From Clostridiaceae bacterium BL-3 (lineage in GTDB: Bacteria; Bacillota; Clostridia; Clostridiales; Clostridiaceae), in NCBI GenBank assembly GCA_902809985.1, contig CADDXC010000001.1, positions 124,001-188,000 of the forward strand: a stretch of DNA of 64,000 nucleotides. The letters run 5' to 3'. Below are positions 37,259 through 54,461 of this stretch, piece by piece; positions within the stretch are counted from its first letter, which is position 1; every line of letters begins with the position of its first letter. The notes below the pieces were generated by a model. That model saw only the letters and a list, made by a program, of their open reading frames with translations. It made no database searches and was not told where the DNA came from. A program made the translations under genes and the position numbers.

Positions 37259-37286
37259 AATTGGAGTTGTATAAGGAGGTTGTAAT

Positions 37287-38669
37287 TTGGAGAAAAATAA
37301 GCTGTTGAGAAAGCTTCCTAAAATTGATGAACTTCTGGATCATGAAGTTGTAAAAGTTGAGTTGGCTGATACTATGAGAATACTTGTGATGAATTCACTC
37401 AGGGAGTCCATAGATTTTTACAGGAATCTCATTTTACAGGAAAAGATAGAGGATTTCTCAGAAGAAGAAATACTTGAAAAATTTAAAAGAATAGTTGATA
37501 AAAAAAAGGAATCGAATTTTAAGGGACTGATAAATGCTACGGGGGTTATTATACATACTAATTTAGGCAGGTCTCTTTTATGTGAAAATGCTTTAAAAAA
37601 TGTAATTAATGTATCTAGCAGTTACAGCAATTTAGAATATAATCTGGAAAGCGGCACCAGAGGTTCAAGGTATAAACACGTGGAAGAAATAATTAAAAGG
37701 GTTACAGGTGCAGAGAGCTCATTGGTCGTCAATAATAATGCTGCTGCAGTACTGCTGGTTCTAAATACCATGTGTAATGGAAAGGAAGCTGTAGTATCTA
37801 GAGGACAGCTTGTGGAAATTGGAGGTTCTTTTAGAATACCGGAAGTTATGAAATTTAGTGGCTCCATTATTGTGGAAGTGGGAACTACCAACAGGACACA
37901 TATTCAAGATTATGAAAATGCCATAAATGAGAATACAGGCGTATTTATGAAGGTGCATACCTCTAATTTTAAAGTAATTGGATTTTCGGCAGAAGTATCT
38001 TCAGAGGATCTGTCTGAGCTTGCAGCAGAAAAGGGAATTCCAGTTATTGAAGATATAGGCAGCGGCACTCTTATAGACTTTTCCAAATATGGTTTTAGCC
38101 ATGAACCTACAGTGCAGGAAAGTATAAAGAGCGGTATAGATGTAGTTACCTTCAGCGGCGATAAAATGCTGGGAGGACCTCAGGCGGGTATAATTGTGGG
38201 GAAAAAGAAGTATATAGACAAGATGAAAAAAAATCAGCTTTTAAGAGCTTTAAGAGTGGATAAGATGACTCTTGCCGCTCTTGAAGCTACTCTTAATTAT
38301 TATGTAGATGAAAAAGAAGCTGTAAGAAATATTCCCACTCTGTACATGATGCTCAGCAGCAGTGAGAATCAGAAAAGCAGGGCTCAGATCTTAAAAGAAA
38401 AGTTGGAGCAGAGAGTGCCTGATTTCAAATTCACTGTGGATAGTGACTATTCAATGGTAGGCGGTGGTTCCATGCCTGAAGAAAAGATACCAACTTATGT
38501 AATCAGGACCAGAAGTAATAGAATATCTCCCGAGGAAGTAGATAGGAAATTGAGAAGGGCTGATATTCCCGTAATTGTACGTATAGCTAATGACGAAGTT
38601 GTAATGGATTTAAGAACTATATTAGACAAAGATTTTGATACTTTGGTAAATGAATTCGCAGATTTGTAA
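37287..38669 (+). CDS. selA: L-seryl-tRNA(Sec) selenium transferase
   Basis: 460 aa, full length, TTG start with AAGGAGG upstream. PLP enzyme that converts Ser-tRNA(Sec) to Sec-tRNA(Sec) with selenophosphate. The PLP lysine is K293 in [29 protein letters not shown] and [12 protein letters not shown] are typical. It follows selD by 28 bp in one operon. Confidence 0.97.
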
Positions 38670-38714
38670 AACTCTTGTATTGTGTTTATCGGTTTAAGTT
38701 TGGAGGGAATTTGT

Positions 38715-40622
38715 ATGAAGCACATTATAATAGGAACAGCAGGTCACATAGATCATGGTAAAACTACACTCATAAGGGCTCTCACGGGGAGAGAAACCGA
38801 TACCTTGAAAGAAGAAAAAGAAAGAGGGATATCCATAAACCTTGGATTTACTTTTTTTGACTTGCCCTCCGGGAAGAGAGCTGGAATTATAGATGTACCG
38901 GGCCATGAAAAGTTTATAAAAAATATGCTGGCAGGAGTAAGTGGAATAGATCTAGTGCTTATGGTCATTGCAGCAGATGAAGGAGTAATGCCCCAAACTA
39001 GAGAGCATTTTGAAATACTTCAGCTGTTAAATGTAAATAAGGGCATTATAGTAATTACTAAAATTGATTTAGTTGACAAGGACTGGCTGGAAATGGTAGT
39101 GGAAGATGTAAAAAATGAATTTAAAGGAACTTTTCTGGAGGACGTTCCCATTCATAAAGTTTCCTCGAAAACAAAAGAGGGATTGGATTCTCTAATAGAG
39201 GATATAGATAGGCTTACAGATGTTGTACCTGCCAGAGATACTGTCGGTCATTTCAGGCTTCCTGTAGACAGGGTATTTTCAGTGAGCGGATTTGGAACTG
39301 TTGTAACGGGAACTATAATTAGTGGAAAAATTAAAGAAGGGGAAAACGTACAAATATATCCCTTAAAAATAAAATCCAAGGTAAGGGGAATACAAGTCCA
39401 TGGACAGCAGGTGAGAGAAGCAGAAGCAGGTGAAAGGTGTGCAATAAACGTAGCAAATGTTAAAACCTCTGATATAGACAGGGGAGATGTGGTGTCTGTA
39501 GAAAATTTTATGGAACCTTCCCTTATGGTGGATTGTAAATTATACTATCTTAAAAGTGCTTCAAGACCTTTGGAAAATAGACAGAGGGTGCGATTGTATC
39601 ATGGTACCAGTGAAATTATATGCAGAGTGGTAATACTTGACCGTGAGAAAGTAAATCCAGGTGAGGAAGCTTATGTCCAGCTCAGACTGGAAAAACAGCT
39701 TACATCCCAGAGAAATGACAGATTTGTAATAAGAAGCTACTCCCCAATGTATACCATAGGTGGAGGTACTATAATAGAGCCAGTGGCCAGAAAAGCCAAG
39801 AGATTCAATATGGATTATGTAGAAGAATTGAAATTAAAGGAAAGTGGGAAAACTGAAAGCATACTTGAAAATACAATTAAAAATTTAAGCAGCACTTATC
39901 CCGGAAAAGAGGAAATATTGAAGGCTATTGGGAAAAAGGATGATAATATTCAGGAGGAACTGAAAAAACTTATGGAAAATGAGTCCATAGCAGTGCTGAA
40001 CAAAGGCGATAAACCAGTATATATTCACAGGGACTTTTTAGATAAAAAGGTTGAAATGCTGCAGGGCATTTTAAAGGATTTTCACAGTAAAAATCCTTTA
40101 AAAAGGGGTATGTCTAAAGAAGAGATTAAAAACAGGGTATTTGGAAATAAAATAAAGCAGAAAATATATGACTATATAATAGAATTGCTGAAGGGTAGAA
40201 ATGAAATAAAACTTTATGGAAATTTCATATCCCTAGAGAATTTCAAGGTGGAATATACTCCGGCACAGAATAAAATTAGAGAAAATATACTATTTCAATT
40301 CAATAAAAGTGGATTTATTCCGCCTAAATATCTGGAATTGGAAGCTGGCTGCGGTGACAAGAGAAATTTCGAGATGGTATTTGAATCCCTGGTGGAGGAT
40401 GGGGACATAGTAAAAGTTGGAGAAAATTGTTGGTTTTTATCTAAAGACTATGAATTGGCTAAAAATGTCGTAATAAATTTTATAAAGACCCGGGGAAGTA
40501 TGTCCCTTGCCCAACTGAGGGATGAATTAAATACTAGCAGAAAATATGCCACAATACTTATGGAACATTTTGATGGCATAAAACTTACGAAAAGAGTGGA
40601 TGACGAGAGAATTCTTTACTAA
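38715..40622 (+). CDS. selB: Selenocysteine-specific elongation factor SelB
   Basis: 635 aa from the ATG at 38715 with GGAGGGA upstream; the frame above it is not supported. An N-terminal EF-Tu-like GTPase with [21 protein letters not shown] and TKID, beta-barrel domains II-III, and four C-terminal winged helices (from about 380 on) that bind the SECIS hairpin. It delivers Sec-tRNA(Sec) to recoded UGA codons. It closes the selDAB operon and precedes selC. Confidence 0.97.
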
Positions 40623-40741
40623 TATCCGGAAAATGCTGTATGTAATTAATACATTGAGGTTATAGTAAAGATGAAAGCACTTATATAAAATATTTATGAA
40701 ATGTATAAAATTATTTTATAGATTACTATTTCATTAATTTG

Positions 40742-40771
40742 TTGACATTATAACAGCATTTCACCTATAAT
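40742..40771 (+). promoter_or_regulatory. Promoter of tRNA-Sec
   Basis: Consensus TTGACA (40742-40747), an 18-bp spacer and TATAAT (40766-40771), 18 bp before the tRNA. selC therefore has its own strong promoter. Confidence 0.8.
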
Positions 40772-40789
40772 AATACTTGTGCTTTCAAT

Positions 40790-40886
40790 GGGAGTAGATA
40801 GGTGCTGGTGTGCCTGCCGGTCTTCAAAACCGTGTTGCCGTGCTAAGACCACGACGGGTGGGTTCGATTCCCACATATTCCCGCCA
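40790..40886 (+). tRNA. selC: Selenocysteine tRNA, anticodon UCA
   Basis: 97 nt, unusually long as tRNA-Sec is, with encoded CCA. The anticodon loop CTTCAAA contains TCA, which reads UGA, between GGT and ACC stem ends. A long variable arm (GTTGCCGTGCTAAGACCACGACGG region), the T stem-loop GTGGGTTCGATTCCCAC and an 8-bp acceptor arm beginning GGGAGTA fit selC. It lies directly after selDAB. Confidence 0.95.
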
Positions 40887-43272: not shown

Positions 43273-44502
43273 TCAGACATTTTCTAGAGCCTGCTCCATA
43301 TCTTCTATTATGTCTTCCACATCCTCTATTCCCACGGATAATCTTAGCAGATCATCATATATCCCCATTTGTATTTTTTCTTCTTCTGTATTATTGGAAC
43401 ATATAGTGGAAGAAGGATGAATTATTATGGATTTGGTGTCGCCTATATTTGTAAGGTTTAATATGAGTTTCAGGCTGTTTAAGAAATTAAAAGCCTTCTT
43501 TTTGGTTCCCAGTCTGAAAGTTAAAATACCACCAGCTCCGTTTTTATAATATTTTCTAATCAGGTCATGGTATTTGGAGCTTTCCAGGCCGGGATAGTTT
43601 ACTTCTGAAACTTTTTTGTTAGAGTCCAGATACTTGGCCACTGTAAGTGCACTTTTACAGTGTTCTTTCATTCTGAGAGCCAGTGTCTCCACCCCTGTAA
43701 GATTTAAAAATGCGTTAAAGGGTGACATGGCAGGACCTATATCTCTTCCTATTGTATCTTTGAGTTTGGCTGTAAAGGACATATTGCCGAATTTCTTTAT
43801 ATAAGGCTCAAAATTGTTATATTTTGAGTCAGAATATTTGCTGCTTCCACCATCTATTATAATTCCACCTATGGAGTTGGAGGTTCCGTTTATGTATTTG
43901 GATGTGGAGTGTATTACCACATCTGCTCCATGCTGCAGAGGTTTTATGAGATATGGAGTTGTCATGGTTGAATCAATCATCAGAATAATATTGTGCAGCT
44001 TGCAGATCTTTGAAACAGGGTCTATGTCAAGAACATTCAGCTTGGGATTCCCTATAGTCTCTGCAAAAACCAATCTGGTATTTTCATTTATGGCCAGTTC
44101 CAGGGATTCTTTGTTTAATTCTTCTAAAAATTTTATCTTTATTCCAAAGGATTTTAAATTTCTTATCAAGGTATAGCTGCCGCCATAGAGACCACAGGAA
44201 GCAATTATCTCGTTTCCGGGTTCCAATACGTTCATAATTGCAAGGTAGATGGCGCTCATGCCCGATGCTGCAGATGTTGCACTCAGTCCGTCTTCTATGC
44301 TGGCCATTCTTCTTTCAAAAGATATGACGGTAGGGTTGGATATCCTGGTGTAGGCATAGCCCATGGATTTTCCAGTGAATATATCCTCTAGATTTTCTGC
44401 ACTTTTATGAGCATATGCATTTGAAAGGTAGATGGGGGTATTGGTGGCTCCAGTATAATCTATATTAAAATTTCCATGTATGAGTTTTGTATTGAATTTC
44501 AT
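43273..44502 (-). CDS. metY: MetY-type O-acetylhomoserine sulfhydrylase
   Basis: 409 aa PLP enzyme of the Cys/Met-metabolism family. The PLP lysine is K202 in IHSTSKYINGTSN; YTRISNPTVISFERRMA, ATSAASGMSAIYLA and PFNAFLNLTGVETLALRM are more like MetY/OAH sulfhydrylase than cystathionine gamma-synthase. It would form homocysteine from O-acetylhomoserine and a sulfur donor. As last gene of the SAM-riboswitch operon, after carrier, E1, JAMM peptidase and sulfite reductase, it probably takes sulfur from the carrier's thiocarboxylate. Cystathionine or methionine lyase activity is a less likely alternative. Confidence 0.85.
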   Translation of the reverse strand: MKFNTKLIHGNFNIDYTGATNTPIYLSNAYAHKSAENLEDIFTGKSMGYAYTRISNPTVISFERRMASIEDGLSATSAASGMSAIYLAIMNVLEPGNEIIASCGLYGGSYTLIRNLKSFGIKIKFLEELNKESLELAINENTRLVFAETIGNPKLNVLDIDPVSKICKLHNIILMIDSTMTTPYLIKPLQHGADVVIHSTSKYINGTSNSIGGIIIDGGSSKYSDSKYNNFEPYIKKFGNMSFTAKLKDTIGRDIGPAMSPFNAFLNLTGVETLALRMKEHCKSALTVAKYLDSNKKVSEVNYPGLESSKYHDLIRKYYKNGAGGILTFRLGTKKKAFNFLNSLKLILNLTNIGDTKSIIIHPSSTICSNNTEEEKIQMGIYDDLLRLSVGIEDVEDIIEDMEQALENV

Positions 44503-44571
44503 TGTTTCACTCCCAGTAATTTATTTGAAGGATGGTGTGTGACAAGCATACCACCCTCCATTGACTTCATG

Positions 44572-46905
44572 TTATTTTTTTTGTATCACCAATAAATTGT
44601 AACCGTCATAGTTTGTATCTTTAAAGATTACCTTGTGTCCCTCGTTTTTTACACTTTGGGGAACATTGTTTATAGGATCGCCGTCATCCAAATAAAATCC
44701 CAGCTTTTGCCCGGATTTTACTTTAGAAAGTTCTATTTTCACCTTTACAAAATTTATAGGGCATTTTACTCCTCTTAAATCCACAATTTTAAGGTCTCCA
44801 ATTTTATCATGGTCGTTCACTTCACCATTGTCTTCATTATAGGATTTTGACTGCGTATTCTCTTCTTTTGGAAGGGTTATTTCCAATTTTCCGTTTAAGG
44901 ATCTATACATTGCATCCACTTTGTTGTACAGGTATTCTACTTCTGAAGCTTTGCTGGATATATCATTTGTACCGTCTATTTTGTAGTCTATGAGATCTCC
45001 AAAAAGCTTTTTAATTGAGGGTTTTACATAACCTGTCTCTACAAAATTCTTGTTGAATTCCTCAAATATCTCTCTGTCTTTGTTTGAATCCACTCCTCTG
45101 AGTACCAGAAGGGTTCTTGCCGAGGACAGTGCAGAGGAATACAGATCGGAATTTTGTTTTGTGTCTTTGTACTTCTCAAGTGAGGATTTGGCATTTGACA
45201 AATCCAGTTTTATAACATCCATTACACCGGAACTGCATTCTCCAGGCCCTCTGCCCTTTAATGAAAATCTCTCGCAGGCTCCAAAATCAAAGTAAATATC
45301 GGGATCTTCTACAAATTTATCCACATCGGTGTACTTGCTCATAAGAGTTTTTATATCCGATGACCTGTTATCCAGAAAATCATAAAAATCTTCATATCCG
45401 GAATTAATTTTTAGTTCTGCAAGTTCATGGATGAACAGGGGAACTTTCTTTGCAGGTACATCTCCATAGGTATCTCCCATTCTGGCTACATTTGATCCTA
45501 TTTTTCCTCCAAAGGATATGGAGTACATTGGAACCAGGCCGTTTTTTGTTCGTCTGGCTCTGCCGTGAAGGCCAAGGGCTCCTTTTTCGTGCTGAGCACA
45601 GGAATTTGGGCATCCTGATATAAACAGTCTTGGAAGGGCAGCTTTTATTTCAGGTGATGTACCTTCAAATTCTTTCTTTATGGCTTTTAACAGATTTTGT
45701 GAAAGACATAATCCAAGCTGGCAAGTGGAAGCACCCACGCAGGTTACAGAGTTATCTATGTTGTATATGGAAGTAAAGCTGCCTGTTATTTCTATAAGAG
45801 CTTCAGCATCTTTTTTCTTTAAATCTCTTATAAAAAATCCCTGGGTGTTTGTAACCCTGATGGATGTTTTATAATTCAAATTTTCTATGAAAGCAAGTAC
45901 TTTATTTAAGCTTTCAACTTTTAAATTTCCGCTTTGAGGATGAACATAGACGGAATAGTAGCCTTCCTGTTTTTGCGGAAACAGTACATTTTTAGGCTTT
46001 TCATCCACATTTACGTCCCGGACAATCTTGGCATCAGGGTGTAGTATAAATTCATTTTCATCCACCTGTATGTTGAGACCGCCTTTTTCCTTTAGTTTGT
46101 TTATCTCTGAACTTAATTCTTCAACAAATTTTTTTTCACCCAGTCTCATGAGTATGAACCTTATTCTGGCCTTATTTTTATTGGTTCTGTCTCCTTCGAC
46201 TTCAAATACATTTTTAAGGCCCTGTATATAGTATAGTATTTCATCTGCTGGTATGAAATCCTTAAGCTTTAAAGCAACTCTCGGACTTCCGCCAAATCCT
46301 CCGGCCCCATATACCTCAAAGCCCCTCCTGCCATCTACTATTTTTGCAATGAATCCCAGATCGGATATGGTTGCATTGCCTGTATCTTCTGGACTATTGG
46401 AGAAGGCTATCTTGTATTTTCTGGGCATGTTCATGGTGGTTGGATCTTTTATGAGGTAATTGGTGGCTGCTTTTACATAGGGGGTTACGTCAAAGACGTC
46501 GTCTGTTGAAACACCTGAAAGAGGGGAACACTCCACATTTCGAACGGTATTTCCACCAGTGCCCTTTGTTATTATGCCTACTTCTATCAAAGAATTTATT
46601 ATTGGATAGGCATCTTTCAAATCAACACTTTGAAATTGAATGTCCTGTCTGGAGGTGAATTTCAATTTGCCTTTTGCATATTTTTCTGCAAGTTCACTTA
46701 TACGTTTGAATTGTTCTAAAGTTATGACTCCTCCGGGTATTCTAGTTCTCACCATGTAGGTTTCCTTTTTTCTCTGCTCGTATACACCCATGGAAACCCT
46801 AAAAGCTTTAAATCTCACAGGATCTATTGCATTGTTTAAATACTGCTGTGATTTTTCTTTTATGTCTTCTATGGATTTATAATGATCTTCACTTATATTT
46901 ATCAT
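44572..46905 (-). CDS. Sulfite reductase fused to a TusA-like sulfur-carrier domain
   Basis: 777 aa. Residues about 30-500 are a ferredoxin-type nitrite/sulfite reductase with the siroheme-[4Fe-4S] ligands C389, C395, C432 and C436 (CVGASTC and GCPNSC). Residues about 500-670 are a helical region with FGACERFSLKGRGPGECSSG. Residues about 703-777 are a TusA domain with the active-site cysteine C715 in DLRGVKCPIN. A low-complexity linker (680-700) separates the last two. It would reduce sulfite to sulfide and hand sulfur to the fused TusA cysteine. The fusion and the neighbours imply direct channelling to the sulfur carrier. Confidence 0.9.
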   Translation of the reverse strand: MINISEDHYKSIEDIKEKSQQYLNNAIDPVRFKAFRVSMGVYEQRKKETYMVRTRIPGGVITLEQFKRISELAEKYAKGKLKFTSRQDIQFQSVDLKDAYPIINSLIEVGIITKGTGGNTVRNVECSPLSGVSTDDVFDVTPYVKAATNYLIKDPTTMNMPRKYKIAFSNSPEDTGNATISDLGFIAKIVDGRRGFEVYGAGGFGGSPRVALKLKDFIPADEILYYIQGLKNVFEVEGDRTNKNKARIRFILMRLGEKKFVEELSSEINKLKEKGGLNIQVDENEFILHPDAKIVRDVNVDEKPKNVLFPQKQEGYYSVYVHPQSGNLKVESLNKVLAFIENLNYKTSIRVTNTQGFFIRDLKKKDAEALIEITGSFTSIYNIDNSVTCVGASTCQLGLCLSQNLLKAIKKEFEGTSPEIKAALPRLFISGCPNSCAQHEKGALGLHGRARRTKNGLVPMYSISFGGKIGSNVARMGDTYGDVPAKKVPLFIHELAELKINSGYEDFYDFLDNRSSDIKTLMSKYTDVDKFVEDPDIYFDFGACERFSLKGRGPGECSSGVMDVIKLDLSNAKSSLEKYKDTKQNSDLYSSALSSARTLLVLRGVDSNKDREIFEEFNKNFVETGYVKPSIKKLFGDLIDYKIDGTNDISSKASEVEYLYNKVDAMYRSLNGKLEITLPKEENTQSKSYNEDNGEVNDHDKIGDLKIVDLRGVKCPINFVKVKIELSKVKSGQKLGFYLDDGDPINNVPQSVKNEGHKVIFKDTNYDGYNLLVIQKK

Positions 46906-46922
46906 AATATCTCACTCCTTTT

Positions 46923-47333
46923 TTAAACTATTTCATACTCAAGCTTTTCAACATTTTTGTCTTTGTCGATTTTAAACAAATTAAATACTGGTTTCTTTTT
47001 TTCAAGAGATAAAATTCCGTACAATATTTTGTCATCAAAAGCAAGCCTTTTATCCTCTTCAGATGGCCTGGAAGGTGAATAAGGATGAGAATGATAATTG
47101 CCAATCATATTAAATTTTTCACTTCTCATGAGCTTTACAGCTTTGAATTGTTCGGCAGGATCCATGGAAAAATGTTCGCTGCTGTGATCTGTATTGGTCA
47201 AGGAGTATATTTTTTTAATAAAAATATCTTTTCCAGAATCCAGTCCTCCAAGATAACCACAGCATTCATCGGGAAATTCATCCCTGGCCTGTTTTAAAAT
47301 TTTTTCATATTGCAATTTGTCTATATATATCAT
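46923..47333 (-). CDS. JAMM/MPN+ metallopeptidase, HcyD-like
   Basis: 136 aa from the ATG at 47333, with AGGTGAT upstream; a longer frame begins at 47384 inside the preceding gene. The JAMM zinc motif is complete: E23 (PDECCGYLGG), H81-S-H83-P, S91 and D94. Such peptidases cut after the Gly-Gly of ubiquitin-like sulfur carriers (Mec+ for CysO, QbsD for QbsE, HcyD for HcyS). The carrier two genes upstream ends GGG plus NSGF, exactly the kind of tail that needs removal before activation. Confidence 0.88.
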   Translation of the reverse strand: MIYIDKLQYEKILKQARDEFPDECCGYLGGLDSGKDIFIKKIYSLTNTDHSSEHFSMDPAEQFKAVKLMRSEKFNMIGNYHSHPYSPSRPSEEDKRLAFDDKILYGILSLEKKKPVFNLFKIDKDKNVEKLEYEIV

Positions 47334-47346
47334 AAATATCACCTGC

Positions 47347-48168
47347 TTAATTTGCTGTTTTGAGATCACAGGCTGTCTGTTCATAGTCTATCAGCTTTTT
47401 TATTGTAGGGTGCTCACCGCATATGCCGCAGTTCTTGTTCTTGGATACCTTTATTTTTCTGAATTCCATTGTCATTGCGTTGTAAGTCAAAAGATATCCT
47501 GCAAGGGTACTGCCGATTTTAAGTATATACTTGAGGGCTTCTGTTGCCTGAAGTGATCCTATAATTCCTCCCATTACACCTAGAACACCTGCTTCCTTGC
47601 AGGTTGGTACAACACCTGCAGGAGGTGGTGATTGAAAAATACATCTGTAGCAGGGAGTACCGTTGTCAGGTATATAAGTTGTGAGCTGCCCTTGAAATCT
47701 TATTATTCCTCCATGTGAAAATGGTTTTTTGGAAATTACACAGGCATCGTTTATTAAAAATTTGGCGGGAAAATTATCTGTACCGTCTATTATAAAATCA
47801 TAATCCTGGTCCTTTATGATATCCAAGATATTGCTGGAGTCTACAAGTTCCCTATAAGTTATTACATTTACGTCTGGATTCAATTCATTTATGGTTTCTT
47901 TTCCGGACTGAACTTTAGCCTTTCCCACGTCCTTTGTGCGATGGATTATCTGTCTTTGAAGGTTTGAAAGATCCACTATGTCTCCATCTACAAGGCCTAT
48001 AGTTCCTATCCCTGCAGCAGCCAGATACATGGCAGCAGGTGCTCCCAGACCGCCCGTACCTATAATGAGGATTTTGGAGTTTAAAAGTTTTTCCTGACCT
48101 TCCACACCTACTTCGGACAGGATAATGTGTCTTGAATACCTTTCTATCTGATCCTCACTAAAATCCAC
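47347..48168 (-). CDS. ThiF/MoeB/HesA-family E1-like adenylyltransferase, HcyF-like
   Basis: 273 aa from a GTG at 48168, eight bases after a GGGGGG run; the start MDFSEDQIERYSRHIIL matches MoeB/ThiF proteins. The ATP-binding motif is GTGGLGAPAAMYLAAAG (about 37-53), with DLSNLQRQ after it. Two CxxC pairs (CYRC at about 173, CGIC at about 247) bind zinc, and C190 in VPTCKEAG is the candidate catalytic cysteine. It adenylates the carrier's C-terminal glycine for thiocarboxylate formation. It overlaps the carrier gene by 11 bp. Confidence 0.92.
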   Translation of the reverse strand: MDFSEDQIERYSRHIILSEVGVEGQEKLLNSKILIIGTGGLGAPAAMYLAAAGIGTIGLVDGDIVDLSNLQRQIIHRTKDVGKAKVQSGKETINELNPDVNVITYRELVDSSNILDIIKDQDYDFIIDGTDNFPAKFLINDACVISKKPFSHGGIIRFQGQLTTYIPDNGTPCYRCIFQSPPPAGVVPTCKEAGVLGVMGGIIGSLQATEALKYILKIGSTLAGYLLTYNAMTMEFRKIKVSKNKNCGICGEHPTIKKLIDYEQTACDLKTAN

Positions 48169-48373
48169 TATTTCCACCCCCCATGAAGTATAGAAAATCA
48201 ATTTTGTCATTTTCTTTTAGAACGGTGCTGTTAAAATTGGCTCTATCTATGAATTCGTCATTTAACTGAACAGAAACCATGTCTGGCATTTCTACATTTT
48301 CTATTTTTAAAATTTTTGTTACAGTGACTCCCTCCTTTATATCTTTAATTTTACCATTAATTGTTACTTTCAT
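48158..48373 (-). CDS. ThiS/MoaD-like sulfur carrier with capped C-terminus, HcyS-like
   Basis: 71 aa from the ATG at 48373, preceded by GAGGAGGG. A beta-grasp fold pattern MKVTINGKIKDIKEGVTV...VSVQLNDEFI...LKENDKIDFLYFMGGG matches ThiS. The chain does not stop at Gly-Gly: four residues, NSGF, follow. Plain ThiS and MoaD end at GG, while CysO-, QbsE- and HcyS-type carriers are made with extra residues that a JAMM peptidase trims. The first gene after the SAM-I riboswitch, it leads the operon. Frame and length are certain; the role is inferred from operon partners. Confidence 0.88.
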   Translation of the reverse strand: MKVTINGKIKDIKEGVTVTKILKIENVEMPDMVSVQLNDEFIDRANFNSTVLKENDKIDFLYFMGGGNSGF

Positions 48374-48462
48374 GATACCCTCCTCGTTGTTCATTTAACA
48401 TTTTTATCTTCTAACCATTTTGGAAAAAAGAATTTACACTTAATTTAAACTGTGACAAAATA

Positions 48463-48616
48463 AAAAACTTTCCTGTTATAATTTACAAGAAAGTCATTTT
48501 TATAATTAATTTTCTCATCTTTCAGGCAAATTATATAACCCGCTGGAATTGGCACCTTTGAAAATAATCGGGTTGCCGGGCATCATAGGGCCAGTCCCTC
48601 TGCCTCTCTTGATAAG
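48463..48616 (-). promoter_or_regulatory. SAM-I riboswitch with terminator, controlling the hcy-like operon
   Basis: Read leftward. The aptamer (48616 down to about 48513) has CTTATCAAGAG, GAGGGACTGGCCCTATGA, GCCCGGCAACC, AAGGTGCCAATTCC and GAAAGATGAGA, the S-box landmarks. Downstream, a terminator pairs ACTTTC...TGT with ACA...GAAAGT before TTTTTT (48463-48495). High SAM should terminate transcription of the carrier-E1-JAMM-sulfite reductase-metY operon. Confidence 0.95.
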
Positions 48617-48639
48617 AATTCAATGTTTAATTTATTAAA

Positions 48640-48668
48640 TACTAACACATTTAAAATAAATTTGTCAA
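48640..48668 (-). promoter_or_regulatory. Promoter of the SAM-I/hcy-like operon
   Basis: On the minus strand, TTGACA (48668-48663), a 17-bp spacer and TTAGTA (48645-48640), about 25 bp before the aptamer. It is back to back with a rightward promoter. Confidence 0.6.
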
Positions 48669-48773: not shown

Positions 48774-48862
48774 AAGAATTAAGAATTCAATTTTGGTAGA
48801 TTTTCGATTTATCCGAAAATCTTCATAATTGTGCATTGTAAAATGTGAATTGTACATTGACT
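48774..48862 (+). repeat. Candidate intergenic repeat with hairpin and ATTGTGCATTGT-type units
   Basis: AATAAGAATTAAGAATTCAA, then a perfect 9-bp hairpin AGATTTTCG (48798-48806) / CGAAAATCT (48814-48822), then ATTGTGCATTGT and GTGAATTGTACATTG with near-repeats. The composition resembles a short interspersed element of clostridial intergenic DNA. Only one copy is in this window, so this is tentative. The remainder of the 48374-48895 gap holds the riboswitch and two promoters. Confidence 0.35.
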
Positions 48863-48895
48863 AAAGTATACAATAATGATAAAAGGTATGATGTT

Positions 48896-49939
48896 ATGAT
48901 AGACAATTACAGATTATTTAGAGATCTAGCTTCAGAAGAAAAAGAAATATTCAATTTAATACAAAAAAATGGTGTTATGACCAAGAATGAAATCTTATTT
49001 AAAACAGGTATGAAATTGACTACGCTGAATCGAGTTATGAACCCACTTGAAAAAAAATCCATTTTGGTTCAAAAATGTATGGGCGAATCTACAGGCGGAA
49101 GGAAACCTGTGCTGTATGATGTAAATGTGTGCAGGTTTTATATTATGGGCATAAGTATATGCAGCACTCATGTGCAGGTATCTATAGTGAACTTGAGAAT
49201 GGAAATTTTTTATAAAAAGGGCTTTTATATCGATTATTGCAATTCTTGTGATGAAGTCATAGAAGAAATTCTCTATATTATAAAGAGTGCCTATGAGGAA
49301 TTAAATCTAAAACTTCTCCAGCTTGTGGGAATTGGGCTTGCAGTTGAAACGGGGTTTTGGGATAATGAGCGCATAAGTAGAATACTTGAAGAAAAGTTGG
49401 GGTGCAGTGTAACCAGCGGTAATTGTGCAGACTCAGCTGTTACTGCGGAGTATTTTTATGGAGCAGGAAGGAATTTTGAAAATATGGCTTATTTTGATTG
49501 TGGTGCTAGACTGAAGCAGGCGGCAGTCATACAGGGGAGGATTATGAGATCATCCGGAGATAATGAGTATGCCTTTGAACATATGATTGAAAACATTTAT
49601 GGTTATATTGATTTTAATGAAGTATATTCAAGGAGTATGAAAAATTGTGGAACATCTGAAAAATTTATTTTAGATGCCGCATCAAAACTGGGAAAAAGCA
49701 TTGAATCCTATACAAATTTATTGAACATTGAATGTATTGTATTAAGCGGATTTCTGATTGATTTTGATACGTTTTATGAAACCTGTATAAAATATATTCC
49801 TGAAAGAGTATCCGTAAAAAGATACGGATATTTTAAAGAAGACTCGGTTTCAGTAGGTGCAGCGGCTCTTTTTCTTGAAAGGTGTATTGATAATAAAAAT
49901 TCAAAATATAAAAAAATTGTTGTTGACAAAGTATTTTAA
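48896..49939 (+). CDS. ROK-family transcriptional regulator
   Basis: 347 aa from the ATG at 48896, which has AAAAGG nine bases upstream; a frame from 48845 is open but lacks a site. An N-terminal winged helix (about 10-70: IFNLIQKNGVMTKNEILFKTGMKLTTLNRVMN) with GRKPVLYDVN, followed by a degenerate ROK sugar-kinase fold with GIGLAVETG and CADSAVTAEYFYGAG. The usual ATP and zinc motifs of active ROK kinases are weak, so it is a regulator. It lies between two divergent SAM-controlled operons and may regulate one of them; its ligand is unknown. Confidence 0.8.
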   Translation: MIDNYRLFRDLASEEKEIFNLIQKNGVMTKNEILFKTGMKLTTLNRVMNPLEKKSILVQKCMGESTGGRKPVLYDVNVCRFYIMGISICSTHVQVSIVNLRMEIFYKKGFYIDYCNSCDEVIEEILYIIKSAYEELNLKLLQLVGIGLAVETGFWDNERISRILEEKLGCSVTSGNCADSAVTAEYFYGAGRNFENMAYFDCGARLKQAAVIQGRIMRSSGDNEYAFEHMIENIYGYIDFNEVYSRSMKNCGTSEKFILDAASKLGKSIESYTNLLNIECIVLSGFLIDFDTFYETCIKYIPERVSVKRYGYFKEDSVSVGAAALFLERCIDNKNSKYKKIVVDKVF

Positions 49940-49983
49940 AAGTTATATCATATACGTAAATTAAAAATGAATAATGAATAACT

Positions 49984-50136
49984 TCTTATCAAGAGTGATG
50001 GAGGGACTGGCCCTATGATATCCGGCAACCTGAATAGATTTTGTATTCAATGGTGCTAATTCCAGCAGGTATACCCTGAAAGATGAGAGACAAGAGGATA
50101 TGACTTCCTGTGGTTTCTCCACAGGAAGTTTTTTTA
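49984..50136 (+). promoter_or_regulatory. SAM-I riboswitch with terminator, before the sulfonate-type ABC operon
   Basis: Aptamer 49984-50089: CTTATCAAGAG, GAGGGACTGGCCCTATGA, TCCGGCAACC, ATGGTGCTAATTCCAGC and GAAAGATGAGA. The terminator follows with a perfect 11-bp stem ACTTCCTGTGG (50103-50113) / CCACAGGAAGT (50119-50129) and a long T run. It makes the downstream transporter genes SAM-repressed, like the divergent operon. Confidence 0.95.
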
Positions 50137-50142
50137 TTGGAC

Positions 50143-50230
50143 TGACTAGAAAAACTAGAGGTCAAGTTGAACTTATTATAGAGATGGATTATATAATCTC
50201 TACTTAGTAAGTTATACTTGGCCTTTTATT
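50143..50230 (+). promoter_or_regulatory. Attenuator-like element, copy 1 (22-bp motif plus terminator)
   Basis: The motif TGACTAGAAAAACTAGAGGTCA (50143-50164, split for reading as TGACTAG-AAAAA-CTAGAGGTCA) can fold on itself. Its last part, AGGTCAAGT (50159-50167), also pairs with ACTTGGCCT (50216-50224) in a long three-part terminator stem followed by TTTTATT. The two folds exclude each other. The rest of the gap to 50444 shows nothing clear. Confidence 0.6.
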
Positions 50231-50444
50231 GTGTATTAGTGTATCTACTTGATAAAATAAATGGAGGTTAGGATGTGATATGAAGATTTAAAATATAGAA
50301 TAGAGAAATTTCAAATACTTTTTACCAAAATAGTAAAAAGGGTGTAAATAAATGAATTGAATTCTGTAGTGATTCTAAATTATGACAATTTCAATGTTTA
50401 CATATTTAAAATAATATGAGTTGAATTATAAGGAGAAAATAAAG

Positions 50445-51248
50445 ATGAAGGCAGCAAATATAAAAATTAACTCTTATAAAGAATTAAAAATTTTAGGGAA
50501 TGTAATTATTGCATTGATAGTCCCAGTAATGTTATTGATATTATGGCAGGTGTTAAGTAGTAAGGGGTTGATTAAACAGTCAGTTCTTCCTTCTCCATCC
50601 AAAATATTCTTAACTTTGATTGACATGATTAAAAGTGGAGAACTTCTTAGAAATTTATATGTAAGTGTAGTTAGAGTTATAAAAGGATATTGTATAGGTG
50701 CAGCCTTAGGAATAATTTTTGGAATATTTATTGGGTTATTTAGAATAGCAGAGAGAGCCATAGATTTACTGATACAATTTTTAAGACCAATTCCTATTGT
50801 TGCATGGGTACCAGTTCTTATTTTGTGGATGGGTATTGATGAGGCATCTAAAATAACTGTAATAGTAATTGGCAGCTTTTGGCCAATATTAATAAATACA
50901 ATTTATGGTATAAAAAGTACTGATAAAAAATATTTAGAGATTTCCGAAATATTGGAAAAAAATGAATTTGAAAAACTAATAAAGATAGTTTTTCCTTCTG
51001 CACTTCCGTCAATTTTTACAGGACTTCGCATCGGAATCGGAAGTGCATGGATGAGTGTTATTACAGCAGAAATAATAGCTGCTACTTCTGGAATAGGCTA
51101 TGCAATATCTTATGCAAGGGAGTTATCACAGCCTGATGTAATGCTGGTTGGAGTTTTCTCAATAGGGGTAATTGGATTTTTGATAGATTATTTCATAAAA
51201 AAATTACAGTATGTAATTGTAAAATGGGATGTTAATAATGGAAATTAG
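50445..51248 (+). CDS. ssuC: ABC transporter permease, sulfonate/taurine type
   Basis: 267 aa from the ATG at 50445 with AAGGAGAAA upstream. About six membrane segments and the permease EAA-like loop SEILEKNEFEKLIKIVFPSALPSIFTGLRIGIGSAWMSVITAE, in the style of SsuC/TauC/NrtB. It would form the membrane channel with the ATPase that follows and the lipoprotein at 53442. It is downstream of a SAM-I riboswitch, so a sulfur-containing substrate is likely; which one is not shown. Confidence 0.88.
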   Translation: MKAANIKINSYKELKILGNVIIALIVPVMLLILWQVLSSKGLIKQSVLPSPSKIFLTLIDMIKSGELLRNLYVSVVRVIKGYCIGAALGIIFGIFIGLFRIAERAIDLLIQFLRPIPIVAWVPVLILWMGIDEASKITVIVIGSFWPILINTIYGIKSTDKKYLEISEILEKNEFEKLIKIVFPSALPSIFTGLRIGIGSAWMSVITAEIIAATSGIGYAISYARELSQPDVMLVGVFSIGVIGFLIDYFIKKLQYVIVKWDVNNGN

Positions 51249-51266
51249 GAAGGGAGTATAAATATT

Positions 51267-52055
51267 TTGAATAAACAAGAAAATTGTAATGCTATTGAGA
51301 TAAAAAATTTAAATAAAAATTTCAAATTAGATGGCGGAAACCTTAATGTGTTAGAAGATATAAACCTGTCAGTCAAAAAAGGAGAATTTTTAAGTATTGT
51401 AGGAGCAAGTGGATGTGGAAAAAGCACGTTGCTGAGAATAATAGTCGGATTGGATAAAGATTATAGCGGAGCTATTTTTTCTTATGGTAAACCTGTTAAT
51501 GGACCAGGAATAGATAGGGGAATGGTATTTCAGGAAGCAAGACTTTTTCCATGGCTTACAGTAGAAAAAAATGTAGAATTTGGGATAAGTGAGAAAATGT
51601 CGAGTGAAGAAAAAAGAGAATTAGTTTATAAACAACTTGAATTAGTCGAACTGACTGGCTTTGCAAGATCATATCCAAATCAGCTTTCAGGAGGGATGAA
51701 ACAAAGAATAAGTATTGCAAGGGCACTTATAAATAAACCAAAACTGCTATTGCTTGACGAACCATTTGGAGCGCTTGATGCTATGACACGTATTAATATG
51801 CAACAGGAGATTCTAAAAATATGGGAAAAGGAAAATACAACCATGATACTTGTAACCCATGATATAGATGAAGCAATTTATCTTGGAGATAGGGTTGTAG
51901 TATTATCAAAGAGGCCTGGAAAAATTAAAAAAATAATACATGTAAATTTGACGAGACCTAGGGATAGAGGTAATTATGATTTTACGCAGATTAAAAGTGA
52001 AATATATGATGAGTTTTTTACGAAAGTTGATAATCCATTTTCATGTAGTATGTAG
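51267..52055 (+). CDS. ssuB: ABC transporter ATP-binding protein, sulfonate/taurine type
   Basis: 262 aa from a TTG, with GGAAGGGAG upstream. Walker A GASGCGKST (about 47-55), Q-loop VFQEARLFPWLTV, signature LSGGMKQRISIARAL, Walker B LLLLDEPFGALD and the switch histidine in VTHDIDEA are intact. The Q-loop phrase is typical of SsuB/TauB/NrtD. It is paired with the permease 18 bp upstream. Confidence 0.92.
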   Translation: MNKQENCNAIEIKNLNKNFKLDGGNLNVLEDINLSVKKGEFLSIVGASGCGKSTLLRIIVGLDKDYSGAIFSYGKPVNGPGIDRGMVFQEARLFPWLTVEKNVEFGISEKMSSEEKRELVYKQLELVELTGFARSYPNQLSGGMKQRISIARALINKPKLLLLDEPFGALDAMTRINMQQEILKIWEKENTTMILVTHDIDEAIYLGDRVVVLSKRPGKIKKIIHVNLTRPRDRGNYDFTQIKSEIYDEFFTKVDNPFSCSM

Positions 52056-52148
52056 ATTTAAAATATAATGGGAGAGAGAAGTAAATTAGCTAATATATTT
52101 ATTTGGAATATTCATAATAATGGTAAGATTATACTTTTAATTGGATTG

Positions 52149-52180
52149 AAAAATCTCAATTTAATCACTGAGATTTTTTT
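52149..52180 (+). terminator. Terminator or attenuator between ssuB and the PLP-enzyme gene
   Basis: AAATCTCA (52151-52158) and TGAGATTT (52169-52176), extended by A/T pairs, then T7. It splits the transporter pair from the next three genes, though all probably share a purpose. Confidence 0.75.
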
Positions 52181-52225
52181 ATAACTAAAATTAATGAAAA
52201 TATTTAAATAAAGGAGACTTAATAA

Positions 52226-53425
52226 ATGAGCTATTATAGTTATTTGGAATGTTCAAAATGTGGTAAAAAGTACTCAAAGGATGAACCTCATAATCTGTGT
52301 GAATGTGGCGGACCACTGCTGGTTAGGTATGATTTTGATGAGATTAAAAAAAATGTGGACAAAAATATTTTTAAGACAAGAAAGAAGGGGCTATTTAGAT
52401 TTAAAGAACTACTTCCAATAGATGATGAGAATAATATAGTAACCCTTGGAGAAGGTGATACCCCTATAACTGAGGCTAGAACCTTGGGAAGAAGAATAGG
52501 ATTTGAAAATCTGTATATAAAAGATGAGGGGCTTAATCCGACAGGAACGTTTAAAGCAAGAGGTGCTGCAGTTGGTGTGTCGAAGGCGAAAGAATTGGGC
52601 ATAAAAACAATAGCTATGCCTACTGCGGGAAATGCGGGGGGAGCGTGGTCGGCATACTCGGCTAAAGCTGGCATTAAGCTTGTAGTTGCTATGCCGCAAG
52701 ATGCTCCTGAGCTTGCTAAGAAAGAAGCATATATATATGGAGCAAAGACTTATCTTGTAAAAGGTTTGATATCTGATGCAGGTAAAATAATATCGAGAGG
52801 TGTAAAAAAGCATGGCTGGTTTGATGCTGCGACTTTAAAAGAACCCTATAGAATCGAGGGTAAAAAAACTATGGGAATTGAAATAGCAGAATATTTTGAC
52901 TGGGAATTTCCTGATGCCATACTTTATCCTACAGGAGGAGGTGTTGGAATAATTGGTATATGGAAGGCATTCAATGAGTTAAGGCAACTGGGATGGATAA
53001 AAGATAAAATACCAAAACTTATTTCTGTTCAGGCAGAAGGTTGTAATCCTATAGTTAAAGCTTTTAATAAGAAAAAGGATGTTTCTGAATTCTGCAGTGG
53101 AGCAAATACTATTGCAGGTGGTATACGTGTTCCCAAAGCACTGGGAGATTTTATAGTATTAGATGCCATAAAAAAGAGCGGAGGTACGGCAGTTCAGGTA
53201 AAAGACTCAGAAATTTTAGATTCTATAAATTTGATTGCTAGAACTGAGGGGCTATTTATATGCCCAGAAGGAGCGGCACTTGTTGCAGCAGTTGAAAAGC
53301 TTAGAAAAAGTAATTTCTTAAAATCCAATGAAAAAATTGTGCTTTTAAATACTGGGAGTGGATTGAAATATCCTAATTTGGTTAGTGAAAAACTTCCTGT
53401 AATTGAAATTGACAATGATATTTAA
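52226..53425 (+). CDS. Threonine-synthase-like PLP enzyme with zinc ribbon
   Basis: 399 aa. An N-terminal zinc ribbon (C9, C12, C25, C27) as in archaeal-type threonine synthases, then a fold-II PLP domain. The PLP lysine is K110 in NPTGTFKARG; true threonine synthases normally read FKDRG, so the Asp is replaced by Ala. PTAGNAGGAWSAYSAKAGI and PTGGGVGIIGI bind the cofactor phosphate. Methanogen cysteate synthase evolved from this family, and cysteate-splitting enzymes share the fold. In this sulfur island, between transporter genes, a beta-elimination or replacement on a sulfur amino acid is plausible. Threonine synthase for the hom-thrB pathway remains possible. Confidence 0.8.
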   Translation: MSYYSYLECSKCGKKYSKDEPHNLCECGGPLLVRYDFDEIKKNVDKNIFKTRKKGLFRFKELLPIDDENNIVTLGEGDTPITEARTLGRRIGFENLYIKDEGLNPTGTFKARGAAVGVSKAKELGIKTIAMPTAGNAGGAWSAYSAKAGIKLVVAMPQDAPELAKKEAYIYGAKTYLVKGLISDAGKIISRGVKKHGWFDAATLKEPYRIEGKKTMGIEIAEYFDWEFPDAILYPTGGGVGIIGIWKAFNELRQLGWIKDKIPKLISVQAEGCNPIVKAFNKKKDVSEFCSGANTIAGGIRVPKALGDFIVLDAIKKSGGTAVQVKDSEILDSINLIARTEGLFICPEGAALVAAVEKLRKSNFLKSNEKIVLLNTGSGLKYPNLVSEKLPVIEIDNDI

Positions 53426-53441
53426 AAAGGAGATGGTTGTT

Positions 53442-54443
53442 GTGAAAAAAATATTTTCCATAGTTGCAATACTACTTATAAGTATATTCGCATTTTCAGG
53501 CTGCGGACAGACAAATAACACTTCAAGCAGTAAAAAACAAAGTGATTCAAAACCTAAAGAGATAAATATAGGATTTCAGCCGGGAATAAATCATTCACTT
53601 TTGATTATTGCTAAAAATAAAGGATGGTTTGATGAAGAATTTAAAAAGGATAATATCAAAATAAAATTTCAAAGTTTTGTTTCAGGGCCTCCTATGATTG
53701 AAGCATTTGCGGGAGGAAAGCTTGATGTAGGAGAAGTTGGTGATCAACCTTCAATTCAGGCTAGGGCAAATAATATTGACATTAAAGCAGTAGGAGTTTA
53801 CGCAGCAGGGTATAAATTGAATTCAATATTGGCAGCTACTGTTTCAAACATAAAATCTGCTAAAGATCTTAAGGGAAAAAAAGTTGCAGTTACAGTTGGG
53901 TCATCTGCACACATCCTTCTCGTAAGATATCTGGCATCTGCTGGACTTAAGGAAAGTGACATAAAACTTGTCAATTTGCAGCCGCCCGATATAAAGACAG
54001 CTTTTACATCCAAGGATATTGATGCTGCAGTTGTTTGGGATCCCTATGCGTCCTCTATTGAATACGAAAAAACAGCAAAATTGATAGGTGATGGAACAAA
54101 TCTAAAATATGATATTAATTTTATTATAGTAGACAATGATTTTGCAAAAAAGAACCCTGATATAGTAAAGAGATTACTGAAGGTATATAAAAAGACTGAA
54201 GATTGGGTTAAAGCAAATCCCGATGAAGCAACAAATATTATGGCTAAAGAGCTTAAATTAAATAAAGTCGTTGTTCAAAAAGGTCTTTCTAGAGAAGATT
54301 TTGACATAAGGTTGACAGATGAGGTTACGAATTCACTTTCATCTACAATTAAAACTTTAAGGCAAAATAAAACTATAAGAAAAGATGTAAAGGTTGATGA
54401 ACTTGTAGATAAAACCTATTTGAATGCTGCAGGAATAAAATGA
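53442..54443 (+). CDS. ssuA: ABC transporter substrate-binding lipoprotein, SsuA/TauA type
   Basis: 333 aa from the GTG at 53442 with AAAGGAGAT eight bases upstream. A lipoprotein signal peptide ends in the lipobox FSGC (Cys at about 21). The mature part matches SsuA/NrtA-type receptors: NIGFQPGINHSLLIIAKNKGWFDEEF, AFAGGKLDVGEVGDQPSIQARA, KGKKVAVTVGSSAHILLVRYL and DAAVVWDPYAS. It delivers the ligand to the SsuC/SsuB pair. It sits between the PLP enzyme and the LarA-like gene. Confidence 0.9.
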   Translation: MKKIFSIVAILLISIFAFSGCGQTNNTSSSKKQSDSKPKEINIGFQPGINHSLLIIAKNKGWFDEEFKKDNIKIKFQSFVSGPPMIEAFAGGKLDVGEVGDQPSIQARANNIDIKAVGVYAAGYKLNSILAATVSNIKSAKDLKGKKVAVTVGSSAHILLVRYLASAGLKESDIKLVNLQPPDIKTAFTSKDIDAAVVWDPYASSIEYEKTAKLIGDGTNLKYDINFIIVDNDFAKKNPDIVKRLLKVYKKTEDWVKANPDEATNIMAKELKLNKVVVQKGLSREDFDIRLTDEVTNSLSSTIKTLRQNKTIRKDVKVDELVDKTYLNAAGIK

Positions 54444-54461
54444 TCATAAGAAGGTATTCAT

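What the first reader, a model, noticed from the sequence alone, without database searches (positions are those of the whole stretch)
43273..48616. SAM-controlled protein-thiocarboxylate pathway to homocysteine, with a fused sulfite reductase-TusA
Five leftward genes after one SAM-I riboswitch form a complete chain. A ThiS-like carrier is trimmed by a JAMM peptidase and adenylated by a ThiF-type E1. Sulfur comes from a sulfite reductase that carries its own TusA domain, and MetY accepts it to make homocysteine. The parts match the HcyS/HcyD/HcyF/MetY route of Wolinella. The Clostridium version has all steps in one operon, and the reductase-TusA fusion suggests sulfide is never free.
Basis: partly seen in the sequence, partly recalled or inferred. 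Interest (0 to 1): 0.75.

Follow-up and report, generated by a model that had tools for sequence, protein, structure and literature searches.

The report
Reductase-fed sulfur carrier for methionine
A Clostridium operon encodes a known but seldom described route in which a small ubiquitin-like protein probably carries sulfur into methionine, and here the enzyme that makes the reduced sulfur is physically joined to a sulfur-handing domain, which makes an open question about that route testable.

Summary
In detail: behind one SAM-I riboswitch lie a ThiS-like carrier (ending MGGG-NSGF), a ThiF-type E1, a JAMM peptidase, a sulfite reductase with a C-terminal TusA domain, and MetY. It belongs to a known kind: operon class 4e of Iyer et al. 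2006 and the Wolinella HcyS/HcyD/HcyF/MetY route (2011 paper not readable here). Added here: (1) the Sir-TusA fusion occurs in 15 of 398 sampled genomes of the phylum, beside carrier, E1 and JAMM in 14 of 15; (2) carrier clusters without the fusion have a separate TusA beside a different, shorter reductase subfamily in 16 of 17, so the fusion acts as a Rosetta stone; (3) cluster TusAs read CPx[N/T], the host's other two CPxP; (4) 31 of 31 linked MetYs, and Wolinella MetY, lack a loop motif present in 30 of 30 high-scoring canonical MetYs; (5) outside Clostridium the partner is often cysteine synthase. "Sulfide is never free" is not shown: the host also encodes two further AsrC-type sulfite reductases and a riboswitched canonical MetY. 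TusA as persulfide relay is the likeliest but untested role.

The parts
48639..48668 (-). sigma-70-like promoter TTGACA-18-TAGTAT
   Evidence: consensus scan, 10 of 12 matches; 39 such matches in the region against a shuffled mean of 28.2, so weak on its own
48512..48618 (-). SAM-I riboswitch aptamer
   Evidence: RF00162 91.4 bits; same element upstream in 10 of 11 Clostridium loci (none in L009)
48466..48495 (-). intrinsic-terminator-like hairpin, probable expression platform
   Evidence: 11 pairs followed by TTTTATTTTG; hairpin in the minimum-energy fold
48158..48373 (-). HcyS-like sulfur carrier, 71 aa, ends MGGG-NSGF
   Evidence: PF02597 and TIGR01683 above cut-off; tail of four after GGG in all 7 Clostridium carriers of A2
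47347..48168 (-). HcyF-like E1 (ThiF/MoeB type, no rhodanese), two CxxC and the Cys of VPTCKEAGVLG
   Evidence: PF00899 alone; Cys in 36 of 37 aligned E1 rows, the exception being a second ThiF-family gene in L047
46923..47333 (-). HcyD-like JAMM peptidase
   Evidence: PF14464; H84-x-H86-x7-S94-x2-D97 invariant in 7
44572..46905 (-). sulfite reductase - helical linker stretch - TusA fusion, 777 aa
   Evidence: PF03460, PF01077, PF01206; R86, R122, K163, K165, C389, C395, C432, C436, C715 invariant in 23
43273..44502 (-). MetY, thiocarboxylate type (lacks the PDxSYHG loop), 409 aa
   Evidence: PF01053; loop and tree
48845..49939 (+). ROK-family regulator, divergent here; a distant ROK relative (33-36% identity) lies on the operon strand just before the carrier in L006-L009
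   Evidence: PF00480
49983..50089 (+). second SAM-I riboswitch, heading the divergent SsuABC-type operon
   Evidence: 89.9 bits
50421..54443 (+). SsuABC-like aliphatic sulfonate transporter genes with a threonine-synthase-family gene between them; possible sulfite source
   Evidence: permease and ATPase; SsuA_fam 254 bits, cut-off 163.5, and PRK08197 threonine synthase 601.5 bits, cut-off 303

Best explanation
This is a SAM-repressed operon for protein-thiocarboxylate-dependent homocysteine synthesis. Shown by sequence: the parts, motifs, riboswitch and family placement. Inferred: when SAM is low the operon is read. The JAMM peptidase trims the carrier's tail after the glycines, and the E1 adenylates the exposed glycine. 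The siroheme reductase reduces sulfite, and its TusA domain (Cys715) takes the sulfur while it is still bound, most likely as a persulfide after partial reduction, in the manner of DsrAB with DsrC. TusA then hands it to the E1 or the carrier adenylate to give carrier-COSH. MetY adds carrier-COSH to O-acetylhomoserine, and JAMM frees homocysteine from the carrier. My estimates: thiocarboxylate route to homocysteine 0.85; TusA as obligatory sulfur relay from the reductase 0.5; no free sulfide at all 0.2.
For: Parts and motifs. Fusion with carrier, E1 and JAMM in the locus in 14 of 15 fusion genomes; at genome level JAMM in 14 of 15 fusion genomes against 52 of 383 others, Fisher p 4e-11, relatedness not corrected. 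Separate TusA beside a shorter reductase subfamily in 16 of 17 unfused carrier clusters, the 17th cut by a contig end. CPxNF in 25 of 25 fused TusAs and CPx[N/T] in 16 of 16 separate ones, CPxP in the host's two other TusAs. Linked MetYs lack the PDxSYHG loop in 31 of 31, as does Wolinella 3ri6, while 30 of 30 of the best-scoring canonical MetYs have it. Tree joins the linked MetYs with 3ri6 at 100/99. E. coli TusA persulfide is described as a sulfur donor for MoaD thiocarboxylate (PMC5372717, passages).
Against: Genome G039 has the fusion, plus carrier, E1 and linked MetY on another contig, but no JAMM by two searches, although its carrier still ends MGGGN. L005 has no MetY in the operon. 3ri6 is a long branch; in the larger tree its group, which then holds the unlinked MetY L140, has only 80/90 support, and an AU test rejects the 31 linked rows plus 3ri6 without L140 as an exclusive clade (p 0.02). 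L140 and two MetY-like proteins with another insert (L141, L144) lack the loop motif without carrier genes nearby. The host has alternative routes. No structure model could be made. The E1 cysteine is also present in general MoeB/ThiF relatives (recalled), so it is not diagnostic.
Confidence: 0.68

Rival explanations
1. Free-sulfide version: the reductase releases sulfide as usual and the sulfide attacks the carrier adenylate, as I recall being reported for Wolinella; TusA only raises local concentration or docks the reductase on the E1.
For: Siroheme reductases of this type normally release sulfide (recalled); the substrate-binding basic residues are kept; the host also encodes two AsrC-type reductases.
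Against: Does not explain why a TusA with an invariant Cys-Pro is kept next to two different reductase subfamilies.
Confidence: 0.3
2. TusA works on the substrate side: it holds sulfite as a Cys-S-sulfonate and feeds it to the siroheme.
For: A TusA homologue is reported to form a Cys-S-thiosulfonate (PMC4175335, abstract in the search listing).
Against: Gene linkage is with carrier, E1 and JAMM; the six reductase-only homologues looked at (L053, L056-L059, L105) have neither TusA nor carrier genes nearby.
Confidence: 0.12
3. The carrier mainly feeds cysteine synthase, and homocysteine is a side branch.
For: In the 15 fusion genomes a cysteine synthase gene is in the locus in 11 (all 11 above the cysK cut-off) and a MetY in 7; CysO/CysM of Mycobacterium is a known parallel (PMC12910592, passages).
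Against: In Clostridium the operon holds MetY in 10 of 11 loci, with no CysK hit in the regions read, and a SAM riboswitch heads 10 of 11.
Confidence: 0.1
4. The carrier, E1 and JAMM act as a ubiquitin-like protein modifier and deconjugase, with sulfur genes only co-regulated.
For: E1 and JAMM have sub-threshold hits to archaeal UbaA and desampylase models.
Against: Fusions join the parts to each other and to sulfur enzymes: Sir-TusA, JAMM-Sir (L142), carrier-E1 (L049, L050, L052).
Confidence: 0.05

Closest known systems
Wolinella succinogenes HcyS/HcyD/HcyF/MetY route (Krishnamoorthy and Begley 2011; only its citation seen, in PMC5764234; content recalled)
   Same: carrier with a C-terminal extension, JAMM protease, E1, sulfite reductase, MetY; MetY 3ri6 shares the loop loss
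   Different: TusA fused to a NirA-like reductase here; SAM-I riboswitch; GGG-xxG(F/L) tail where I recall a single Ala in Wolinella
Iyer, Burroughs and Aravind 2006 operon class 4e (PMC1779556, passages)
   Same: ThiS/MoaD-like, JAB, E1 without rhodanese, SirA, sulfite reductase, O-acetylhomoserine sulfhydrylase
   Different: the passages shown do not mention a reductase-SirA fusion, only ThiS fused to sulfite reductase in two actinobacteria; figures not seen
Mycobacterium CysO/CysM (PMC12910592, passages) with Mec+ (recalled)
   Same: thiocarboxylated carrier plus PLP enzyme and JAMM
   Different: product cysteine; no reductase or TusA in that operon (recalled)
E. coli IscS-TusA-MoeB-MoaD (PMC5372717, passages)
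   Same: TusA persulfide as sulfur source for a carrier thiocarboxylate
   Different: sulfur comes from cysteine, not from sulfite
rDsrAB with DsrC (PMC7596348, passages; trisulfide chemistry recalled)
   Same: a siroheme reductase that uses a protein thiol as co-substrate
   Different: dissimilatory enzyme, other carrier fold; a tusA-like gene in a dsr cluster is mentioned there only for two deltaproteobacterial isolates

Membership tests
HcyS/HcyD/HcyF/MetY pathway | ThiS-like carrier whose C-terminal glycines are followed by a tail | tested here: met
   MGGG-NSGF; every carrier found beside a cluster E1 has at least one residue, or a fused E1, after GGG. Not exclusive: ThiS-like proteins outside the cluster in L090 and L092 end GGGA
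HcyS/HcyD/HcyF/MetY pathway | JAMM peptidase with metal-binding motif | tested here: met
   H-x-H-x7-S-x2-D, invariant in 7
HcyS/HcyD/HcyF/MetY pathway | ThiF-type E1 in the operon | tested here: met
   PF00899 1.7e-84, no rhodanese match; two CxxC
HcyS/HcyD/HcyF/MetY pathway | MetY of the same subgroup as Wolinella MetY | tested here: met
   shared loop loss; 100/99 in the 39-row tree, 80/90 with L140 in the 69-row tree; the AU test rejects the group without L140
HcyS/HcyD/HcyF/MetY pathway | carrier thiocarboxylate is the sulfur donor to MetY | not testable with these tools
   needs enzymology
Operon class 4e (Iyer 2006) | carrier, JAB, E1 without rhodanese, SirA/TusA, sulfite reductase, MetY in one neighbourhood | tested here: met
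   SirA/TusA is a domain rather than a gene
Canonical free-sulfide MetY (TIGR01326) | score above the curated cut-off and the PDxSYHG loop | tested here: not met
   456.1 against 495.1 bits; loop absent
Canonical TusA | CPxP motif (recalled as defining) | tested here: not met
   CPINF; still matches PF01206 above cut-off
Siroheme sulfite reductase | C-x5-C...C-x3-C cluster ligands and R, R, K, K substrate pocket | tested here: met
   invariant in 23; the residue roles are recalled from E. coli SiR
CysO/CysM pathway | cysteine synthase partner in the operon | tested here: not met
   none in the window's operon or the Clostridium regions read; present in 11 of 15 fusion loci across the phylum

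The most novel reading that the evidence does not exclude
The fusion is a closed sulfite-to-thiocarboxylate machine: an assimilatory-type siroheme reductase stops at the sulfane-sulfur level and loads it on its own dedicated CPxNF TusA domain, a DsrAB/DsrC-like hand-off outside dissimilation, so that sulfur passes from sulfite to methionine or cysteine without free sulfide. The same pairing with TusA would serve two distant reductase subfamilies.
Probability: 0.3. Interest if true: 0.78.

Novelty: new variant of a known kind. Interest (0 to 1): 0.5.

Why it matters
Who gives sulfur to the carrier in these pathways, free sulfide or a TusA-bound sulfur, is as far as I know open. A natural one-chain reductase-TusA, with its carrier, protease and E1 in the same operon, makes that directly testable with a single cysteine mutant. 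The MetY loop, the CPx[N/T] TusA motif and the Sir-TusA, JAMM-Sir and carrier-E1 fusions also give markers to annotate a route that PMC5764234 says was absent from MetaCyc and KEGG in November 2017 (passage).

Tried and rejected
Considered and rejected: (a) Fusion as a frameshift or assembly artefact: the frame is open in the window, in all 6 Clostridium relatives and in 13 other genomes of the phylum sample. (b) Plasmid spread: no plasmid record covers 80% of the protein (0 of 98 records with a match). (c) Sole homocysteine route of the host: rejected, since a canonical MetY with its own riboswitch exists. (d) SAM riboswitch as a general feature of the system: no SAM hit in L040-L055 or in the 10 unfused loci scanned (the others not scanned). 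(e) G039 as a clean test of JAMM against tail: it lacks JAMM yet its carrier keeps one residue after GGG, so it gives no support.

Limits: my first loop classification mislabelled rows because two long-insert sequences (L141, L144) widened the alignment; I replaced it by a motif count. The 30 canonical MetYs are the best-scoring matches, so they are chosen by score; 29 of them also have GGHG. L141 and L144 lack the PDxSYHG motif but keep GGHG; 5 non-MetY paralogues of the host lack both; L140 is a linked-type MetY without carrier genes nearby. I looked at 19 of the 52 JAMM-positive genomes without the fusion (20 loci), chosen mostly by JAMM score; 3 of the 20 loci (L089, L091, L100) lacked carrier and E1. 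L081, a second, fragmentary cluster of fusion genome G080, is left out of the counts (its TusA fragment reads CPINF). Literature searches with no paper; some searches gave listings, from which I read passages of five papers. On re-checking I tested the remaining 8 cysteine synthases and 10 more short reductases, and corrected 'unrelated' to 'different subfamily' for the two reductases, which share Pfam domains; the odds did not need changing.
Full report
WHAT IS THERE. A SAM-I riboswitch (48512-48618, minus strand) with a terminator-like hairpin behind it (48466-48495) heads five leftward genes: carrier, E1, JAMM peptidase, sulfite reductase-TusA, and MetY. Gaps are short: carrier and E1 overlap, 13 bases lie between E1 and the likely JAMM start, 17 between JAMM and the reductase, and 69 before MetY (coordinates). 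Catalytic motifs are intact: the JAMM H-x-H-x7-S-x2-D, E1 nucleotide-binding glycines and zinc cysteines, reductase cluster cysteines and basic pocket, and TusA Cys715-Pro716. The window is from a Clostridium close to C. luticellarii: the reductase-TusA is 91% identical.

CONSERVATION IN CLOSTRIDIUM. Six relatives from a genome scan and four further genomes of the genus were read. MetY is in the operon in 10 of the 11 loci including the window (absent in L005). A SAM-I riboswitch lies upstream in 10 of 11; L009 has none even at E 0.1. In the window's genus 9 of 13 genomes hold the full fusion; one of them also has a reductase without TusA (L105).

CONSERVATION IN THE PHYLUM. In 398 genomes drawn from the phylum, 14 (the window's included) have the whole fusion in one frame and one more, G131, has it split over two contig ends. 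Carrier, E1 and JAMM genes are in the same locus in 14 of these 15, counting G131's two contigs together and L042, where the carrier lies 4 kb downstream beyond frames that look like transposase genes to me. JAMM is present in 14 of 15 fusion genomes and 52 of 383 others (E up to 1e-5; Fisher p 4e-11; relatedness not corrected for). The exception, G039, has carrier, E1 and linked MetY on another contig and no JAMM; its carrier ends MGGGN, which is against a strict need for the peptidase unless the assembly misses it.

THE NATURAL CONTROL. I fetched 20 JAMM loci from 19 of the 52 JAMM-positive genomes without the fusion. Seventeen hold carrier, E1 and JAMM with a sulfite reductase of a shorter subfamily. 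In the 14 of these 17 that I tested, the reductase has one NIR_SIR_ferr and one NIR_SIR domain with an inserted 4Fe-4S ferredoxin domain (L082, L087 and L090 not tested). It shares domains with the reductase of the window, so the two are distant relatives, not unrelated. TusA is a separate gene in the locus in 16 of 17; the 17th contig ends within the reductase. So TusA goes with the reductase whichever subfamily is used, and the fusion in the window joins what is otherwise a gene pair. In three fusion loci the carrier is fused to the N-terminus of E1 (L049, L050, L052), and in L142 the JAMM is fused to the short reductase. The six reductases without TusA that I looked at (L053, L056-L059, L105) have no carrier genes nearby.

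A DEDICATED TUSA. All 25 fused TusA domains examined read CPxNF, and the 16 separate ones read CPxT (15) or CPxN (1); the next residue is F in all but L142 (Y). The two other TusA genes of the host read CPxP. CPxP as the usual TusA motif is recalled; I did not survey other TusAs.

A DEDICATED METY. Canonical MetY has a PDxSYHG-type loop: 30 of 30 best-scoring TIGR01326 proteins, the 427-aa paralogue of this genome, and PDB entries 7kb0, 8sf5 and 4kam. None of 31 carrier- or JAMM-linked MetYs has it, and neither has Wolinella MetY, PDB 3ri6 (species recalled). In a 39-row tree the linked MetYs and 3ri6 form one group at 100/99. In a 69-row tree that group, with the unlinked L140 inside, has 80/90, and 7kb0 joins it at 100/100; an AU test rejects the group without L140 (p 0.02). 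The linked set and a canonical set of 34 are separated at 100/100. This places the window's MetY with the enzyme for which thiocarboxylate use was reported (2011 paper; recalled, could not open it).

NOT ONLY METHIONINE. A cysteine synthase gene is in 11 of the 15 fusion loci (all 11 above the cysK cut-off; in L047 it lies about 2.4 kb before the carrier) and MetY in 7. The module therefore looks like a general thiocarboxylate supplier, close in logic to CysO/CysM. In Clostridium the partner is MetY and the control is by SAM.

MECHANISM. TusA persulfide is described as donor for a carrier thiocarboxylate in E. coli molybdenum cofactor synthesis (PMC5372717, passages). The cluster E1s keep the cysteine used by such enzymes (36 of 37 rows), which is not specific. 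A persulfide is sulfur two electrons above sulfide, so a reductase that fills TusA should stop after four electrons, as DsrAB with DsrC is thought to (DsrC as co-substrate: PMC7596348, passages; the rest recalled). This is inference. The free-sulfide version fits the Wolinella chemistry as I recall it and is the main rival. The cell is not sulfide-free by gene content: two AsrC-type reductases above the TIGR02912 cut-off, with AsrA- and AsrB-like neighbours by my reading, and a canonical MetY with a SAM riboswitch.

SULFITE SOURCE. PF01507 has no match in the genome although the same search rang in 14 of 14 control genomes; Sat- and Apr-type families were not searched in the host. The divergent, also SAM-riboswitched operon encodes an SsuABC-like transporter, so sulfonate-derived sulfite is plausible. 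Several relatives outside Clostridium have CysD- and AprAB-like genes in or near the cluster, by my own profiles and reading.

NOVELTY. The pathway and the operon class are known (PMC1779556 row 4e, passages; 2011 JACS paper, recalled). I saw no mention of a reductase-TusA fusion in those passages, and searches returned no paper; the library holds open-licence papers only, so this is weak evidence of absence. I file it as a new variant of a known kind.

Noticed in passing
window 49983-55733 (+): Divergent SAM-riboswitched operon: SsuABC-like sulfonate transporter, threonine-synthase-family protein (PRK08197) and a nickel-pincer-dependent isomerase of group 22. An odd set for a methionine-regulated operon; may process an imported organosulfur compound.
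   Followed up: partly
L142:7514-8788 (-): JAMM peptidase fused to a short sulfite reductase, beside carrier, E1, TusA, MetY and AprA/AprB-like genes. JAMM frames of similar length (428-429 aa) in G087 and G122 suggest the same fusion there.
   Followed up: partly
L049:15164-16186, L050:11208-12248, L052:6248-7300: Carrier fused to the N-terminus of its E1 through a GGG junction; a JAMM cut there would free the carrier from the E1.
   Followed up: partly
L042:14571-14834: Carrier with the tail CCQPKCC after GGG, separated from its cluster by frames that look like transposase genes.
   Followed up: no
L106:5036-5361: Two divergent SAM-I riboswitches between the host's canonical MetY and a gene that reads like methionine synthase MetH (gene name from my reading).
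   Followed up: no
window 36323-40882: SelD-, SelA- and SelB-like genes (names from my reading) and tRNA-Sec: an ordinary selenocysteine locus.
   Followed up: no
window 44806-45348 (-): Conserved stretch between reductase and TusA (LKGRGPGEC...), residues of it invariant in all 23 fusions but without a Pfam hit; no match in the reductase-only homologues. Plasmid-borne reductases of Bacteroidota-type bacteria match the window protein up to residue 625-627, so part of it may exist without TusA.
   Followed up: no
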